DNA of 25,715 nt. Origin: a virus. The stretch lies in IMG/VR virus record IMGVR_UViG_3300037346_000583, positions 1 through 25,715 of that record. One strand, given 5' to 3'. Both the position numbers and the translations under genes were made by a program. This document shows, piece by piece, positions 1,274 to 11,296 of the stretch. Position 1 is the first letter of the stretch. Each line of letters begins with the position of its first letter. Under the pieces are notes generated by a model. It was not told the origin of the DNA, did no database searches, and saw only the letters and a program-made list of their open reading frames with translations.

Positions 1274-3346
1274 CTACACAAGATCATATATATCATAATT
1301 TAAGTTTCCACCTTTAGAATCTTTTTCTAAGATAATATCAATCTTTTCTTGAATACTATCATCTACTTGGTCATAGATCTCTTCGGCAAAATCAGAAAAG
1401 TCTAATGTAAAGAAAAACTCAGAACTATTTATACTCGTCATAATGAGATCATCATTGCCTAATTGACCAGCATATGAGCCGTTTGGGAGTTTACCAAAAG
1501 TAGATGCTTCATATACAGTTTTCTTGTCTTTCAAAATAATTTTATTTTGAGCAATGTACTTTTTGAAGTTTTGGCAAAAAATAGGTTTATTATCTTTTTT
1601 GATTTTAAGACCAAAGTTTTTAATCTTTGCATCAATACGATGCTTAAATTTTACAACCATTTCTTCATCAAAGTCATTCCTTTGTGGGAAGACTGTTTCA
1701 AGTCTTCTTATAAGTTCTCCACCAAACATATTCCATTCAATAATAAGTTTTAAGTTTTCAGAGTAAAACATATCAAATGCTAAAATATAAATAGATTTTG
1801 CAAATTCTTCAATAGTATGTTCATTACTTCTAAATCTACCAACCTGTCTTAGCCTAAAAAAGTCAGTGAAAGCACCTGGTGAAGTAACTCGTTTCCAATC
1901 ATGTTCATCCATTAATTCTATCTTAAAAATATTTACGATAGAGTAGTCACCACCATTACCTTCTGCTATATCTATAGAAAATACCCAATAGTTAGAGTCT
2001 TCTTCTATTTCATCTAAATCAAAATTAGGATCCCATAAAAGTCCTGCATAATCAATATCTTCATCTTCAAATTCTGGAATTTCCCTATGAACAAATTCTA
2101 TTTGTTCATTCTGTAATTTTTTAAGACTATCAGCACTTAGTAATAAAGAAGACCCAGCTATAAATTGATTTCCATATTGGCGATTAAATGCTTCCTCGGA
2201 ACCAAGATTAGCAACTTCCTGTCTCATCCATGCATCATCTCTACCAGGTACATCCCACCAATCAACCCTAAATGGACTATATTCATTCAATCCCTTTTCG
2301 GATGCTGAATAAATGTCATAGAATTTATTAAAGCCGTTCGGGGTACTAGTAATAATTACCTTTGAGTTTATAGATGCAGATACTGTAGGATAAACGTTTT
2401 CATAAAAAGTTTCCACGAAGTTTTGTGGGATATGTGCAAACTCATCCATAAATAATAAATGAATGGTAAAACCAATCGCAGCTTTCTTTGTTGTGGTTTG
2501 TCCAATAATACGACAACCATTATCAAATTTTGAATTAAATACATCCCATTTAAGAACACCAGGTTTTAAAAAGAATGGTAAATGTTCAAGAATAGTTTTA
2601 CCCTTATCGATAATTTCTCTAGTAGTAGCACCTTTATTTGAAAGTATAAGAGAATTTTTATCATAATTAAATAAGGAATACCATGCAATGAAAATCGACG
2701 AGCAAATTGTGTTATGTGAAAGTATTCCATTACTCCAATATCTATGATTTTGACTATCAACACTTACATCAAACATAGAAACAGTAGAGTTATGCTTAAT
2801 TATGTTTGTGACTATAATAGGCCCATCCAATGTGATTACATAATCGCCAGGCTTAATATTCTTTAGAAAAACTTCCTCATACTCTCTATTAAAAAGTATA
2901 TGGTTATCGGCACCTTCTAAATATAACCCATTAAACAATTCAATTCTATATACATCATACGGTTGTGTTATATGAATATTTGAAATAGGTTCCCAACCGG
3001 TATCTGTATCAATCCAAATATTATTTAGTTCTAATGAATTTAGAAGTTTTTTCTTTATATCATTTTGATCCAAGATCATGTGCCTATATTCAATATGTTC
3101 TATAAATTGAATTAGATTAAGTATGATATTTTTTAGTATATTAATCATGTAAAAGTTGTATACATTTTTTATAGTTTCAGTTGGATTTTCATTATATTCT
3201 TTCTCCCATATAACAAGAACTTGGTAATTGTATACTTCAGCTAATTGATTTTTATTCTTGTCATAATTCCAAATTTCCTTTACAGTTAAACCTTTATTTT
3301 TATTTAGATGGTACTTTCTTTCTATTAAAAGAGTCAAGCTTTTCAT
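1274..3346 (-). CDS. 17: Terminase large subunit, C-terminal part, preceded by C-intein (split gene)
   Basis: This frame encodes most of the DNA-packaging motor. Residues about 90-212 are a C-terminal intein half ending HRYWSNGILSHN; Thr213 onward is the terminase C-extein. The extein carries Walker B LLFMDE (about 297-302), a coupling motif VIITSTPNG (about 331-339), and a nuclease domain with the acidic motif SIDIAEGNGGDYS. It lacks its own Walker A, which is on the neighbouring frame at 3300-3872. Joining 127 N-extein and 478 C-extein residues gives 605, against 610 for T4 gp17. Residues about 20-66 match the C-terminal block of a Vsr-like endonuclease. The true start is uncertain: ATGs at 3346, 3148 and 3079 are possible, and 3079 would give a 123-residue C-intein. 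The first ATG overlaps the upstream frame by 47 bases. Function needs protein trans-splicing, or the frames are one intein broken by a 1-base insertion. Confidence 0.9.
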   Translation of the reverse strand: MKSLTLLIERKYHLNKNKGLTVKEIWNYDKNKNQLAEVYNYQVLVIWEKEYNENPTETIKNVYNFYMINILKNIILNLIQFIEHIEYRHMILDQNDIKKKLLNSLELNNIWIDTDTGWEPISNIHITQPYDVYRIELFNGLYLEGADNHILFNREYEEVFLKNIKPGDYVITLDGPIIVTNIIKHNSTVSMFDVSVDSQNHRYWSNGILSHNTICSSIFIAWYSLFNYDKNSLILSNKGATTREIIDKGKTILEHLPFFLKPGVLKWDVFNSKFDNGCRIIGQTTTKKAAIGFTIHLLFMDEFAHIPQNFVETFYENVYPTVSASINSKVIITSTPNGFNKFYDIYSASEKGLNEYSPFRVDWWDVPGRDDAWMRQEVANLGSEEAFNRQYGNQFIAGSSLLLSADSLKKLQNEQIEFVHREIPEFEDEDIDYAGLLWDPNFDLDEIEEDSNYWVFSIDIAEGNGGDYSIVNIFKIELMDEHDWKRVTSPGAFTDFFRLRQVGRFRSNEHTIEEFAKSIYILAFDMFYSENLKLIIEWNMFGGELIRRLETVFPQRNDFDEEMVVKFKHRIDAKIKNFGLKIKKDNKPIFCQNFKKYIAQNKIILKDKKTVYEASTFGKLPNGSYAGQLGNDDLIMTSINSSEFFFTLDFSDFAEEIYDQVDDSIQEKIDIILEKDSKGGNLNYDIYDLV
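2711..3079 (-). other. C-terminal half of terminase intein
   Basis: This is a 123-residue intein segment counted from the ATG at 3079. It contains the block B-type motif GADNHILF (histidine for N-S shift chemistry), a GD turn (KPGDYVI), a block F-like stretch (MFDVSVDSQNHRYW), and the terminal His-Asn followed by Thr+1 of the extein. Block B is normally on the N-terminal half of canonical split inteins. Here it is on the C-half, as in the atypical metagenomic AceL-TerL type. It is clearly homologous to the C-intein at 10536-10883 (shared DTGW, GADNHILF, NHRY, LSHN). Confidence 0.88.
3149..3289 (-). pseudogene. Remnant of Vsr/EDxHD-like homing endonuclease in terminase intein
   Basis: Residues about 20-66 of the downstream frame read KEIWNYDKNKNQLAEV and then NYQVLVIWEKEY. 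This resembles the last helix-strand block of Vsr-fold nucleases; in E. coli Vsr the equivalent is GWRVLIVWEC. The catalytic N-terminal part of such an enzyme is not present upstream. The same block remains at 10887-11042 in the gp44 intein. It is read in frame with the C-intein only if the ATG at 3346 is used. Assignment is from motif memory, not a profile search. Confidence 0.6.
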
Positions 3347-3872
3347 ATAATTTCCATAAAAAATATTTAGCTTTTTCTATCAAGGAAAGTTTACGTTGCA
3401 TTTTAAGTGTTTCAAAATATAATCTACCAATAGTTGTTTTAACCCCCTGGCCGTCCTTTAAAATTAGAATTTCAGTAGAATGCAAAGAGCATTTGCCAAT
3501 TTGTCTACTTGCTAAACATACATTAAACCTTTCCTTCTGAAACTGTTTTAACATTTCTTCCTGGTACGGTCGTAATTCAATAGTCTGCAAACCAAAATCG
3601 GTCATAACAGTACAATAAGTATTAGCAAAGTATACAATATCAGTTGCACACCTTTTTATTTCCTTTATTTCATGAGAGGTATAATTAAAAACCATGTTAC
3701 CCTTTCTTAGATTTGAATTACCTTCGTAAAATGGTGTTGACTTTGGTTTATAACCCTCTTCTATTGCAATCATAAGCTGTTCAACCTTTTCACTTGTCCA
3801 TGAAAAAGATTCTTCAGTCTTACCTATCTGTAATTCAAATCCAGCACTAGGTGCTTGTGGTTTTTGCGCCAT
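3300..3872 (-). CDS. 17: Terminase large subunit, N-terminal part, followed by N-intein (split gene)
   Basis: Residues 1-127 are the N-terminal segment of gp17, ending at the P-loop ASRQIGK (T4 gp17 has SRQLGKTT). The extein then stops: Cys128 begins an intein with block A CSLHSTEILILKDG, and the frame runs 63 residues into intein before a stop. Only about 25-30 of these look like core N-intein; the last ~33 (RKLSLIEKAKYFLWKLYEKL) look like the linker into an endonuclease insertion. The start ATG at 3872 follows the stop of the GroES gene by a few bases, with an A/T-rich leader and no Shine-Dalgarno. A 1-base deletion near 3310-3320 would join this frame to the downstream one, so a contiguous intein damaged by one frameshift (or a sequencing error) is the alternative to a genuine split. 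Confidence 0.88.
   Translation of the reverse strand: MAQKPQAPSAGFELQIGKTEESFSWTSEKVEQLMIAIEEGYKPKSTPFYEGNSNLRKGNMVFNYTSHEIKEIKRCATDIVYFANTYCTVMTDFGLQTIELRPYQEEMLKQFQKERFNVCLASRQIGKCSLHSTEILILKDGQGVKTTIGRLYFETLKMQRKLSLIEKAKYFLWKLYEKLDSFNRKKVPSK
3402..3491 (-). other. N-terminal half of terminase intein (core)
   Basis: The intein begins at Cys128 (codon 3491-3489), immediately after Lys of the Walker A motif, and carries only splicing block A (CSLHSTEILI, compare CLSYETEIL in DnaE inteins). About 30 residues are core; the distal boundary is an estimate. Confidence 0.8.
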
Positions 3873-7830: not shown

Positions 7831-8227
7831 TACTTATCTGTTTTTCTAAAACATTAATGGCAGTTTTAACCTCAGCTTGATTATACTTTATAGCTTCAGA
7901 AAATTCTCTATTACCAATTTCATTAAACTTCATATAAAGTTCAACTGCTTTAGGGTCTGGTACCCATTCCTTTTCCTTTGGTTGTTTTTTAACTTTAGTG
8001 TAAATAAAACCAGGTACTTTATTAAATTTAGAAGCAACCATCCGCCATGCCTCAGCTTGACCGACTGGATCAGTTTTTAATGTATTGAATAGATTTGCTT
8101 GTATTGGAAATTTTATGCCCATAAATCTATTTATCATGAATGAATTCCTAGACTTATCGTAATTAGAAACTTTATCCCAATGTTCATCTTTACCAAATAA
8201 AACCTTAATGTAGTCGAATAGTTGCAT
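7814..8227 (-). CDS. 62: Clamp loader small subunit, gp62-like
   Basis: The 137-residue protein starting MQLFDYIKVLFGKDEHWD carries NSFMINRFMGIKFP near its N-terminus. This fits the F-x-INRF-x-S motif I know from clamp-loader small subunits of cyanophage T4-likes. gp62 forms the 4:1 complex with gp44 that loads the sliding clamp gp45. It is encoded after gp44 and RNase H and is shorter than T4 gp62 (187). I chose the ATG at 8227; an in-frame TTG at 8248 would add seven residues (SYKYKK preceding) that look like leader. A TATAAATA word on the minus strand at 8235-8242 lies only 7 bases before the ATG. Confidence 0.6.
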   Translation of the reverse strand: MQLFDYIKVLFGKDEHWDKVSNYDKSRNSFMINRFMGIKFPIQANLFNTLKTDPVGQAEAWRMVASKFNKVPGFIYTKVKKQPKEKEWVPDPKAVELYMKFNEIGNREFSEAIKYNQAEVKTAINVLEKQISNDASR

Positions 8228-8284
8228 CTTTTTATATTTATAAGACAATAATTCTTTTAGTTTTAATAAAAGTCTTAAAACTGA

Positions 8285-9505
8285 TTAAAATATTTTGTTT
8301 TGTGTTTTGTGATCTTTAATAAAAGAAAAATCAGTAGAATCAGATTCATCATCTTTAAAAATTTTAGATGAAATTCCTATAGTAGTTTCTTCTGCTTTAT
8401 ATGGGCTACCCTCCAATAGAGATTTCATTGTAGAAACTTCTTTAAGATCAGGTATAATATGATTTAATGTAGATTCAACATGGCGAAGCATTTCGTCAAG
8501 TATACCTTCAGGAATAGATTCCGAAGAAAGAACCATTATGTTTACGTTAGATCTAATGTTTGTAATGATTTGTTCCCTACTCATATGCTTTGCTTTCATA
8601 ACCCTAATGATTATATTTGCAAGGTCGATTATCAGCTCATTATTATAAAGATACATATGAGAAAGACCACCATGTTTTTGCTTAAACTCTGCTATAATTT
8701 CAGCAGCTTTTTTATCACTGATTCCATATCTTCTATTTTTAAGAATGTACCAATATGCAGGTGAAACATTGTCACCAGAGTCACCAGTTAATACTTTAGC
8801 AAATCTAAATTCTTCAGGGTCTACTTCTAAAATAGAAACCTTTTTCTTTTTTACTAGATTTTGTAATAGTTTCTTAGTTTGATTTTCTGGAGATACCGAT
8901 ACCTTGATCATATCAAAAATATCAGTAGATTCCACTTCATTATCAGAGTTCATCCATTCAGAAAACCCTTGATAAGTATATAGTTTTTTATGAGCTGGTG
9001 AAAATAGAATTGTATATGCACCACTAGTTGATTTATTTACAAGTTGAACAATATCTCTATCACCAGTAAACATAATAACTGATTTTTCATTTGCAATAGA
9101 TTCAGTATTCCATGCATACATTAAGTCATCACCTTCTGCACCATTAATTTTTGATATCTGTACTCCTTTACGAGTAAGGATTGAGATGAAGTCAGTAGAT
9201 ACTTTGGAAAAGTTTTCCCAGTTAATACCACTATCTTGTGTACGATTTCCTTTATAATCTGCCTCTGGGTAAAAGTCCTTACGCCATGAACGTGAATCTA
9301 CAGTCCATACGATTTTATCAATTAAGCCTTCTAGTAATCTAACTTGATATGAAAAATCAGTTGCTAATTTTGATATAAAGGATTGGACTTCTTCATTAGT
9401 TTCTAATAAAGCTTTAGATTTACTACCTCGAGGCAATACATATAAAGTTCTAAATAAAAAGTAATTTCCATCGATTACTAAAGTATGTCTACCGTTCTTT
9501 CTCAT
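8285..9505 (-). CDS. rnh: RNase H / 5'-3' exonuclease (FEN-like)
   Basis: This 406-residue flap-endonuclease-family protein would remove Okazaki-fragment RNA primers in phage replication. Metal-binding acidic residues are visible in order: Asp12 in LVIDGN, Asp70 in VWTVDSR, Glu124/Asp126/Asp127 in GAEGDD, Asp149 and Asp151 in FTGDRDIVQL, and Asp242/Asp245 in LTGDSGDNVSP. The last is followed by a helix-turn-helix-like segment (YGISDKKAAEIIAEF). It is longer than T4 RNase H (305 residues), mainly from an insertion at about 190-230 and a C-terminal extension of about 100 residues. It has its own ATG with an AT-rich leader, 30 bases after the preceding small ORF. Confidence 0.85.
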   Translation of the reverse strand: MRKNGRHTLVIDGNYFLFRTLYVLPRGSKSKALLETNEEVQSFISKLATDFSYQVRLLEGLIDKIVWTVDSRSWRKDFYPEADYKGNRTQDSGINWENFSKVSTDFISILTRKGVQISKINGAEGDDLMYAWNTESIANEKSVIMFTGDRDIVQLVNKSTSGAYTILFSPAHKKLYTYQGFSEWMNSDNEVESTDIFDMIKVSVSPENQTKKLLQNLVKKKKVSILEVDPEEFRFAKVLTGDSGDNVSPAYWYILKNRRYGISDKKAAEIIAEFKQKHGGLSHMYLYNNELIIDLANIIIRVMKAKHMSREQIITNIRSNVNIMVLSSESIPEGILDEMLRHVESTLNHIIPDLKEVSTMKSLLEGSPYKAEETTIGISSKIFKDDESDSTDFSFIKDHKTQNKIF

Positions 9506-9535
9506 TATATTTGTATTTTTATAAATAATAACATG

Positions 9536-9718
9536 TTAATCTGTTTTCTGAAAGCTGATATCACTATTAATGTGTTTTTTAATAAATCTATCTTCAATTT
9601 CATGAATTTCTAGAAATTCATTTTCTTTATGAAAGAAATAAAATTTTCTAATAAGTTCGCCTAATTCAAAATTATTAGGAAACCTGGAGATTATTAATTG
9701 TAAAAGTTTTAGTGTCAT
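9536..9718 (-). CDS. Small hypothetical protein between gp44 and RNase H
   Basis: The 60-residue product begins MTLKLLQLIISRF and ends in a charged helix (NEFLEIHEIEDRFIKKH). The ATG at 9718 follows the gp44 stop by one base (taaTATG arrangement). A GTG three codons earlier is also possible and would overlap gp44. No motif is recognised. Tight coupling to gp44 suggests a real gene with a replication-related or regulatory role, but this is weak. Confidence 0.5.
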   Translation of the reverse strand: MTLKLLQLIISRFPNNFELGELIRKFYFFHKENEFLEIHEIEDRFIKKHINSDISFQKTD

Positions 9719-9719
9719 A

Positions 9720-10883
9720 TTAAGCACCGTTTAGTATACTCTGGACTTCATAGATACACGCCAGCATTGATATAGCAGGATCAATTACTTGTTGTCTTTG
9801 TGATTGGTATTTAGATACAGTTACAACTACTTGTGGAATAAATGAAATGTATGAAGGTCTTTCCTGTTGAATATACTGAATGAATTCTACACCTAATGAA
9901 GATAATACATCATCCACTCTATTTGAATAATTAGATAACATATATTGATAGTTTTTAACAGGATCTGTGTTATCAATCACCAAATCAAATATATCTTTAT
10001 AAACGGAACTAAACTTCTTAATATCATTAACAGTTATCATTTCAATTCCTTGTGATTTAAACCCTTGTAGCTGATTAAGCATGTTTCTTAAATCTGGGAA
10101 TTTGCGCTTTACTAATTCAACAGCTGCATGTTTATCAATACCAATACCTTCTTCTTTACAGATTTGTAAGATTCTAATTATGTAGCCTTTCATAATCTCA
10201 GCTTCCTCTTCCTTTGTAAAATCAAAATCAATCATTTCAAATCTAGATTGAATTGGATCAGGAACTTTATTGATATAGTTACATGTTGCTACAAATCTTG
10301 CGTTAGATGCAAATTGGTCCATAGTTGCACGAAGTGCTTTAAAGAATTGATCTGATACACCATCTATCTCATCAAGTATAATTACTTTAAGTTTACCGGG
10401 TTCATCCATAATTGAACGATTAGCACAAAAATCAGTAATACGATTTCTTACAACATCAACAGATGTATCAGTTGATGCATTAATGTATAGATATGGGTGT
10501 TTAAAATGTTTTACTAGAGCCTTCGCTGCACTCGTATTATGAGATAGGAAGTCATTTGTGTAATATCTATGATTAGTTGTATCAGGCAGTTCTAAATCAT
10601 ACATTTCCTCAAGATAACCTAAATTCTTAATTGATGATAATGTAGCAATACCATTTTTAGTTAATATAGTGTCGCCTATGCTTAAATCTTTAATATAAAC
10701 TTCATTATAATGTTCATCAAACAAAATATGATTATCAGCGCCATTGAGTGTTAGACCGCATGTAGTTTTAACTTCCCATACAGAATATTCGATAGTTTTA
10801 TGTGAAGTTTTAATATCGCACCACCCTGTGTCTGTAAGTACTTCATAATCATTAATTTTTTTACTCTCCGTAAATTTTTTCAT
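9720..10883 (-). CDS. 44: Clamp loader gp44, C-terminal part preceded by C-intein (split gene)
   Basis: Residues 1-116 are an intein C-half; Thr117 onward is the AAA+ clamp-loader body. The extein begins TSAAKALVKHF, completing Walker A, and has Walker B VIILDEIDGV, the switch/arginine region (FKALRATMDQF, sensor VATCNYINKVPDPIQSRF with the SRF arginine finger), and a C-terminal helical collar. Joining 49 N-extein residues (11150-11296) with these 271 gives 320, against 319 for T4 gp44. Without trans-splicing this product lacks the P-loop lysine and would be inactive. Its ATG at 10883 is preceded by an in-frame stop that ends the endonuclease remnant, so the split is real at the reading-frame level: at least two stops separate it from the N-part. 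Confidence 0.92.
   Translation of the reverse strand: MKKFTESKKINDYEVLTDTGWCDIKTSHKTIEYSVWEVKTTCGLTLNGADNHILFDEHYNEVYIKDLSIGDTILTKNGIATLSSIKNLGYLEEMYDLELPDTTNHRYYTNDFLSHNTSAAKALVKHFKHPYLYINASTDTSVDVVRNRITDFCANRSIMDEPGKLKVIILDEIDGVSDQFFKALRATMDQFASNARFVATCNYINKVPDPIQSRFEMIDFDFTKEEEAEIMKGYIIRILQICKEEGIGIDKHAAVELVKRKFPDLRNMLNQLQGFKSQGIEMITVNDIKKFSSVYKDIFDLVIDNTDPVKNYQYMLSNYSNRVDDVLSSLGVEFIQYIQQERPSYISFIPQVVVTVSKYQSQRQQVIDPAISMLACIYEVQSILNGA
10536..10883 (-). other. C-terminal half of gp44 intein
   Basis: This is a 116-residue intein segment from the ATG MKKFTESKK to His-Asn (LSHN) before Thr+1. It contains DTGW, GADNHILF (block B histidine), DLSIGDTIL, YDLELPDTTNHRYY (block F/G) and the terminal Asn. 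It is about the length of the AceL-TerL C-intein (104) and homologous to the terminase C-intein at 2711-3079. Confidence 0.9.
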
Positions 10884-10886
10884 ATT

Positions 10887-11042
10887 TTAATTAGTTAAGA
10901 ATGCTATGCATTGTTTTTGCATATCGTTTTTATTATTCCAATCAGATTCCCATATTGTTAATACGGTATATCCGTGTCTTTCAGCAATTTGAATTTTATT
11001 AAGAGTATGTGCCCATATATCAGAGTTAGCATTACATGGCTG
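10887..11042 (-). pseudogene. Remnant of Vsr/EDxHD-like homing endonuclease in gp44 intein
   Basis: A 51-codon open stretch, bounded by an in-frame TGA (11043-11045) and TAA (10887-10889), reads NSDIWAHTLNKIQIAERH and then GYTVLTIWESDW. It aligns without gaps to the terminase remnant (EIWNYDKNKNQLAEV, NYQVLVIWEKEY). It has no start codon near its beginning, and the catalytic part of a Vsr-fold enzyme is absent. It is in the same frame as the C-intein gene, one stop plus one codon upstream of that gene's ATG. Confidence 0.65.
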
Positions 11043-11059
11043 TCACGGTTACGTATTAT

Positions 11060-11296
11060 TTAAAGTTCATGAAATTCTCTGATTGTCATTGTTGTAATCT
11101 CACCTGTTGTTTTAGATTTAATATTGATACACGTATCACCTGTTACACATTTACCAGTACCAGGTGAGCCATGTAAAAGTAAATGTTGATAGACGCCCTT
11201 TGATAACTTATCACCAACTCTCTTTGGTGTAATAAGATCATTTAAATTTTGTGGACGATACTTCTCTGTAAGAAGGATGTTTTGAATATTTCGCAT
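11060..11296 (-). CDS. 44: Clamp loader gp44, N-terminal part followed by N-intein (split gene)
   Basis: Residues 1-49 are the AAA+ N-terminus: LTEKYRPQNLNDLI (the clamp-loader box II-type KYRP motif) and Walker A HLLLHGSPGTGK. Cys50 starts an intein, CVTGDTCINIKS, and the frame stops 29 residues in, at MTIREFHEL. This is a complete short gene with its own ATG at 11296 and an AT-rich leader. It diverges from the plus-strand gene at 11372. A CATATAAAAATA word upstream on the minus strand (11313-11320 region) may be its promoter. To give functional clamp loader it must trans-splice with the 387-residue product at 9720-10883. Confidence 0.92.
   Translation of the reverse strand: MRNIQNILLTEKYRPQNLNDLITPKRVGDKLSKGVYQHLLLHGSPGTGKCVTGDTCINIKSKTTGEITTMTIREFHEL
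11063..11149 (-). other. N-terminal half of gp44 intein (29 residues)
   Basis: The intein begins at Cys50 (codon 11149-11147), just after the P-loop Lys, and contains only block A (CVTGDTCINIK) plus a strand and the start of a helix (MTIREFHEL). This is close to the 25-residue AceL-TerL N-intein, which begins CVYGDT. Canonical DnaE-type N-inteins are about 100 residues. Confidence 0.9.

What the first reader, a model, noticed from the sequence alone, without database searches (positions are those of the whole stretch)
10536..11149. Clamp loader gp44 split by a second, related intein with a 29-residue N-half
Seen: gp44 is cut at GSPGTGK|T. The upstream gene stops 29 residues into the intein (CVTGDT... 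to HEL). The downstream gene starts with a 116-residue C-intein, and the frames are separated by more than one stop. Exteins sum to 320 residues, T4 gp44 being 319. The sigma factor, portal and capsid genes around it are intact, so the phage looks functional and a working gp44 is expected. Inference: an essential replication ATPase assembled by trans-splicing from two proteins, with one of the shortest natural N-inteins. I do not recall a described split intein in gp44 of this type.
Basis: partly seen in the sequence, partly recalled or inferred. Interest (0 to 1): 0.88.

Follow-up and report, generated by a model that had tools for sequence, protein, structure and literature searches.

The report
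Split-intein phage clamp loader gene
A phage's DNA-replication clamp loader is encoded in two separate genes that almost certainly get stitched together by a naturally split, self-removing protein element, left behind after its DNA-cutting partner gene decayed; it is a new host gene for a known kind of element.

Summary
Confirmed. gp44 (clamp loader, PHROG 168) is cut at the Walker A lysine GSPGTGK|T into a 78-aa gene (49-aa extein + 29-aa IntN) and a 387-aa gene (116-aa IntC + 271-aa extein), in different frames. The exteins sum to 320 aa and align without a gap to intact relatives (304/320 identical). All class-1 splicing residues are present. The modelled IntC is a Hint fold (pLDDT 95), closest to the atypically split inteins VidaL and Cat.

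The 176-nt gap holds the last ~46 codons of a Vsr-like homing endonuclease. Three other lineages split gp44 at the same codon and still carry that endonuclease: L003-L005 and L172 intact, L188 in a frame interrupted by N bases. So the stops are real, and the window is a "fractured gene" that lost its endonuclease but kept the split intein.

It belongs to a large phage family of short-IntN inteins in Walker A motifs (TerL, DnaB-like helicase, Clp ATPase, SbcC-like, gp44). "One of the shortest N-inteins" is wrong: 15-37 aa are published. The window's TerL intein is a distant cousin, not the source. Trans-splicing is inferred, not measured. Novelty: new host gene for a known kind.

The parts
11150..11296 (-). 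gp44 N-extein, 49 aa, ends ...LLHGSPGTGK (Walker A lysine)
   Evidence: translation; PHROG 168 positions 9-56
11063..11149 (-). IntN, 29 aa, CVTGDTCINIKSKTTGEITTMTIREFHEL; stop codon at 11060-11062
   Evidence: aligned with 21 other IntNs, C1 invariant; length and boundary shared with L003, L172 and L188
10887..11042 (-). Remnant of a free-standing Vsr/EDxHD-like homing endonuclease (last ~46 codons plus a degraded lead-in; no usable start; catalytic region gone)
   Evidence: profile of 19 endonucleases matches 10890-11024 at 37 bits, E = 1e-10; best of 1000 shuffled controls 7 bits
10536..10883 (-). IntC, 116 aa, MKKFTESKK...GADNHILF...NHRYYTNDFLSHN
   Evidence: AlphaFold2 pLDDT 95.3; Hint fold, VidaL Z 14.9, Cat IntC Z 14.0; block B His, penultimate His and terminal Asn invariant in 48 aligned IntCs
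9723..10535 (-). gp44 C-extein, 271 aa, starts T(+1)SAAKALVKHF; stop at 9720-9722
   Evidence: PHROG 168 positions 56-310, E = 1.7e-51; AAA and Gp44_lid in Pfam
3303..3491 (-). IntN (63 aa with tail) of the second split intein, in TerL; same family, separate acquisition
3152..3316 (-). Endonuclease C-terminal remnant between the TerL intein halves
   Evidence: endonuclease profile 54 bits, E = 1e-15; intact endonuclease at the same place in relative L086
2711..3052 (-). IntC of the TerL split intein
   Evidence: alignment A1; L113 TerL is its nearest relative, 67%

Best explanation
gp44 is a former 'fractured gene'. A mobile unit made of an atypically split class-1 intein (short IntN, long IntC) with a free-standing Vsr-like homing endonuclease between the halves inserted at the Walker A codon GK|T. 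In this phage the endonuclease has since been deleted down to a ~46-codon remnant, while the split intein stayed because an uncut P-loop is needed. The two gene products meet, IntN docks onto IntC to complete the Hint fold, Cys1 makes the N-terminal thioester, Thr+1 takes over the N-extein, Asn116 with His115 cyclises, and a seamless 320-aa gp44 is released. Shown: the anatomy, the residues, the predicted fold of IntC, the remnant, the intact relatives and the empty sites. Inferred: the splicing itself, its rate, and that this is the phage's only gp44.
For: Exteins join in frame to a full-length gp44 with no missing or extra residue; 77 of 77 fetched relatives L006-L082 hold an uninterrupted gp44. 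The same split is at the same codon in L003-L005, L172 and L188; the endonuclease between the halves is intact in L003-L005 and L172, and in L188 it lies in ORFs with N bases among them. C1 is invariant in 22 IntNs; the block B His, penultimate His and Asn116 are invariant in 48 IntCs; +1 is always T or S. The IntC profile hits VidaL 7e-13, gp41-1 2e-11, CatC 8e-8; the model matches VidaL and Cat at Z 14-15. Window against L003: dN/dS 0.21 for the intein (dS ~1.4) and 0.07 for the C-extein (dS ~2.1), i.e. purifying selection. Endonuclease remnant E = 1e-10. The endonuclease catalytic domain models as Vsr (Z 11.5) and I-Bth0305I (Z 10.2).
Against: No splicing was measured. The record is a 25.7-kb fragment, so an intact gp44 elsewhere cannot be strictly excluded. 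dS is near saturation, and much of the window-L003 divergence may predate loss of the endonuclease. The sequence-only match of the endonuclease profile to I-Bth0305I is weak (E = 0.11).
Confidence: 0.9

Rival explanations
1. The split copy is a dead or dying gp44, and the phage relies on another intact copy or on the host's clamp loader.
For: The window is a fragment; the endonuclease part is degraded.
Against: Extein and intein reading frames are clean, dN/dS is 0.07 and 0.21, and 13 related intein-free contigs of up to 182 kb hold a single gp44 each.
Confidence: 0.05
2. The two gp44 pieces work as a non-covalent two-piece enzyme without splicing, as reported for the split NrdA of phage Aeh1 and the split gene 43 (reviewed in PMC2988022).
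For: Such split phage enzymes without inteins exist.
Against: The break is inside the P-loop between Lys and Thr; each piece carries a conserved intein half with every catalytic residue kept.
Confidence: 0.03
3. Assembly or sequencing artefact that broke one contiguous intein-containing gene.
For: The record is metagenomic.
Against: The same boundary in independent contigs of three further lineages; about 60 different inteins of the family, most of them split near the same place.
Confidence: 0.01

Closest known systems
AceL-TerL / GOS-TerL / Cat (consensus TerL) atypically split inteins
   Same: Cys1 (AceL-TerL, Cat), short IntN (25, 37, 30 aa) and ~104-115-aa IntC, split after the first helix (S2 site) (PMC11766414, PMC13014065); Hint fold (Z 14.0 to Cat IntC)
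   Different: Those are in terminase; this is in gp44, with C1/T+1, and only distantly similar in sequence (CatC E = 8e-8, CatN E = 0.03)
VidaL atypically split intein
   Same: Best PDB match by sequence profile and by fold
   Different: VidaL IntN is 16 aa, split after beta-strand 2 (S1; PMC13014065); here 29 aa
Fractured genes of Dassa et al. 2009 (gp41-1, NrdJ-1, IMPDH-1 ...; own knowledge, paper not held)
   Same: Enzyme gene broken by a split intein with a free-standing Vsr-like homing endonuclease between, seen intact in L003-L005 and L172
   Different: gp41-1/NrdJ-1 types are split at the canonical site (long IntN, short IntC); here the split is near the N-end, and in the window the endonuclease is only a remnant
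Archaeal RFC small-subunit inteins
   Same: Intein in a homologous clamp loader; listed for archaeal RFC in PMC5874633
   Different: From own knowledge those are contiguous, many with LAGLIDADG endonucleases; not compared in detail here

Membership tests
Class-1 split inteins | Nucleophile at position 1, block B His, penultimate His, terminal Asn, nucleophile at +1 | tested here: met
   C1, H52 of IntC, H115, N116, T+1; conserved across the family
Class-1 split inteins | Hint (horseshoe) fold | tested here: met
   AlphaFold2 pLDDT 95.3; 46 PDB matches at E <= 0.001, all inteins or intein-like domains
Class-1 split inteins | Ligates its exteins in trans | not testable with these tools
   needs an experiment
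Atypically split inteins (AceL-TerL/Cat type) | Naturally split near the N-end, IntN about 15-37 aa | tested here: met
   29 aa; the IntC model aligns to Cat from Cat residue 26 on; ranges from PMC13014065
Fractured genes (Dassa et al. 2009) | Free-standing homing endonuclease gene between the intein halves | tested here: not met
   Not intact in the window, only a C-terminal remnant; met in relatives L003-L005 and L172. The window is therefore a derivative of a fractured gene
EDxHD/Vsr-like homing endonucleases (the gene lost here) | Vsr-like catalytic core with conserved E..G...H..D | tested here: met
   I-E-x-x-G-x-x-x-H invariant and a downstream Asp nearly so in 19 endonucleases; Vsr Z 11.5, I-Bth0305I Z 10.2; sequence profile alone is weak, E = 0.11
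T4 gp44 clamp loader | AAA+ core and gp44 lid, colinear with PHROG 168 | tested here: met

The most novel reading that the evidence does not exclude
gp44 is a repeated target of two different split-intein lineages at its two ATP-site motifs: the short-IntN type at Walker A (four lineages here) and the canonical long-IntN type at Walker B (LR756500 and relatives). In both, losing the endonuclease leaves the gene permanently split, so an essential replisome ATPase is locked into dependence on trans-splicing, which could add a dose- or temperature-dependent control on replication.
Probability: 0.35. Interest if true: 0.65.

Novelty: new member of a known kind. Interest (0 to 1): 0.5.

Why it matters
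It adds the sliding-clamp loader to the phage enzymes that seem to depend on protein trans-splicing, and shows the step after the 'fractured gene': endonuclease gone, split kept. The family found around it (about 60 different inteins in TerL, DnaB-like helicase, Clp-like ATPase, SbcC-like and gp44 genes, in P-loops) is a ready source of short-IntN split inteins for protein chemistry and shows stages with endonuclease, without it, and fused.

Tried and rejected
Group I intron or other known RNA in the gap: Rfam gave no match anywhere in the window. Duplication of the gp44 intein from the TerL intein in the same window: rejected (AU p = 0.0007). A single origin of the gp44 inteins of the window, L090 and L172: neither shown nor rejected (p = 0.53); L188 was not in that tree. 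Single-sequence Pfam and PDB searches were too weak to name the intein; profiles were needed. Foldseek's top two matches for the endonuclease model (mitoribosomal chains, TM 0.15-0.19) are meaningless; Vsr and I-Bth0305I come next and are among the leaders by VIA-align. Dassa et al. 2009 and Bachmann & Mootz 2015 are not held, so I could not check whether a clamp loader is among the enzyme types of 2009; searches for 'intein' with 'clamp loader' or 'gp44' gave no phage clamp-loader intein in the papers I opened.

Full report
Observation. On the minus strand gp44 lies in two ORFs, 11060-11296 (78 aa) and 9720-10883 (387 aa). The first ends in ...LLHGSPGTGK + CVTGDTCINIKSKTTGEITTMTIREFHEL; the second starts with 116 residues ending ...NHRYYTNDFLSHN, then TSAAKALVKHF. 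Removing 29 + 116 residues leaves 320 aa that align without a gap to the uninterrupted gp44 of L007, 304/320 identical. PHROG 168 (clamp loader) matches the first ORF at profile positions 9-56 and the second at 56-310.

Not an error, not chance. A scan of IMG/VR with the C-part found three contigs (L003-L005, one lineage) with the same cut. Junction-pattern scans added L172, and the genome collection added L188, a contig binned with a bacterial MAG, whose C-extein is PHROG 168. Their IntNs are 30, 32 and 33 aa. The 77 other gp44 loci fetched, L006-L082, are uninterrupted at the same codon.

Origin. In L003-L005 and L172 a free-standing ORF of about 375 aa lies between the halves; in L188 the same kind of protein is there in pieces among N bases. 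A profile of 19 such proteins matches the window's gap at 10890-11024 with 37 bits (E = 1e-10), against 7 bits for the best of 1000 shuffles. The window thus keeps the last ~46 codons of the endonuclease; its catalytic region is gone. The same profile finds a second remnant (54 bits) between the halves of the window's split TerL, where relative L086 has an intact endonuclease. The endonuclease's C-terminal domain models with good confidence and matches Vsr (Z 11.5) and the I-Bth0305I catalytic domain (Z 10.2); by sequence the match is weak (E = 0.11).

The intein. With an alignment of 48 IntCs, the IntC model has pLDDT 95.3; the PDB matches are led by inteins, VidaL and Cat among the closest. 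Profile search gives VidaL 7e-13, gp41-1 2e-11, CatC 8e-8, and the IntN profile's best hit is CatN, E = 0.03. Catalytic positions are complete and conserved. dN/dS against L003 is 0.21 for the intein and 0.07 for the C-extein; dS is ~1.4 for the intein and ~2.1 for the C-extein, so these are rough.

The family. Among about 60 different inteins tallied by script, 45 have an IntN found on the contig: 31 split with a gap over 260 nt, mostly an endonuclease, and 14 split with a short gap (gp44 and TerL of the window among them); 4 more are contiguous and 10 had no IntN found (pattern-based, so approximate). Hosts by PHROG on sampled loci: terminase, DnaB-like helicase, ATP-dependent protease (Clp-like), SbcC-like, and gp44. 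The window's gp44 intein groups with L090 (= L003) gp44 (100/91); its TerL intein sits in another clade.

Mechanism. Class-1 trans-splicing as described under Best explanation. Splicing is inferred. Whether the split copy is the only gp44 is likely, not shown: 13 related intein-free contigs of 54-182 kb each carry one gp44.

What is known. Natural atypically split inteins have IntNs of 15-37 aa (PMC13014065; PMC11766414), so 29 aa is ordinary for the kind. Fractured genes with Vsr-like endonucleases were described by Dassa et al. 2009 (own knowledge; cited in PMC7090010, text not held). A clamp-loader case was not found in the papers I could search. Verdict: real, functional-looking, new host gene for a known kind.

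Noticed in passing
window 1274-3872: TerL is also split by an intein of the same family, with an endonuclease C-terminal remnant fused in frame ahead of IntC; both split genes of this phage have lost their endonucleases.
   Followed up: partly
L170 (LR756500.1 204139-212825, reverse complement), L179-L182: gp44 is independently invaded at Walker B (ILDE|CDG) by a canonical intein: split with a gene in between in L170/L179, split with a short gap in L181, contiguous in L180 and L182.
   Followed up: partly
L174, reverse-complement coordinates 8009-10363: A Clp-like ATPase gene cut twice by this intein family, at both Walker A motifs, so the protein would need two trans-splicing events from three pieces.
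   Followed up: no
L114 vs L115; L141 vs L128: Near-identical split inteins with and without the intervening gene (gaps 10 vs 1472 nt, 12 vs 991 nt): apparently recent losses that kept the split.
   Followed up: partly
L138, L140, L157, L159: Contiguous members of the same family, IntN and IntC in one ORF.
   Followed up: no
L177, L178: Another AAA+ ATPase cut at GxPGTGK|C by this intein family; the host gene was not identified by a family search.
   Followed up: no
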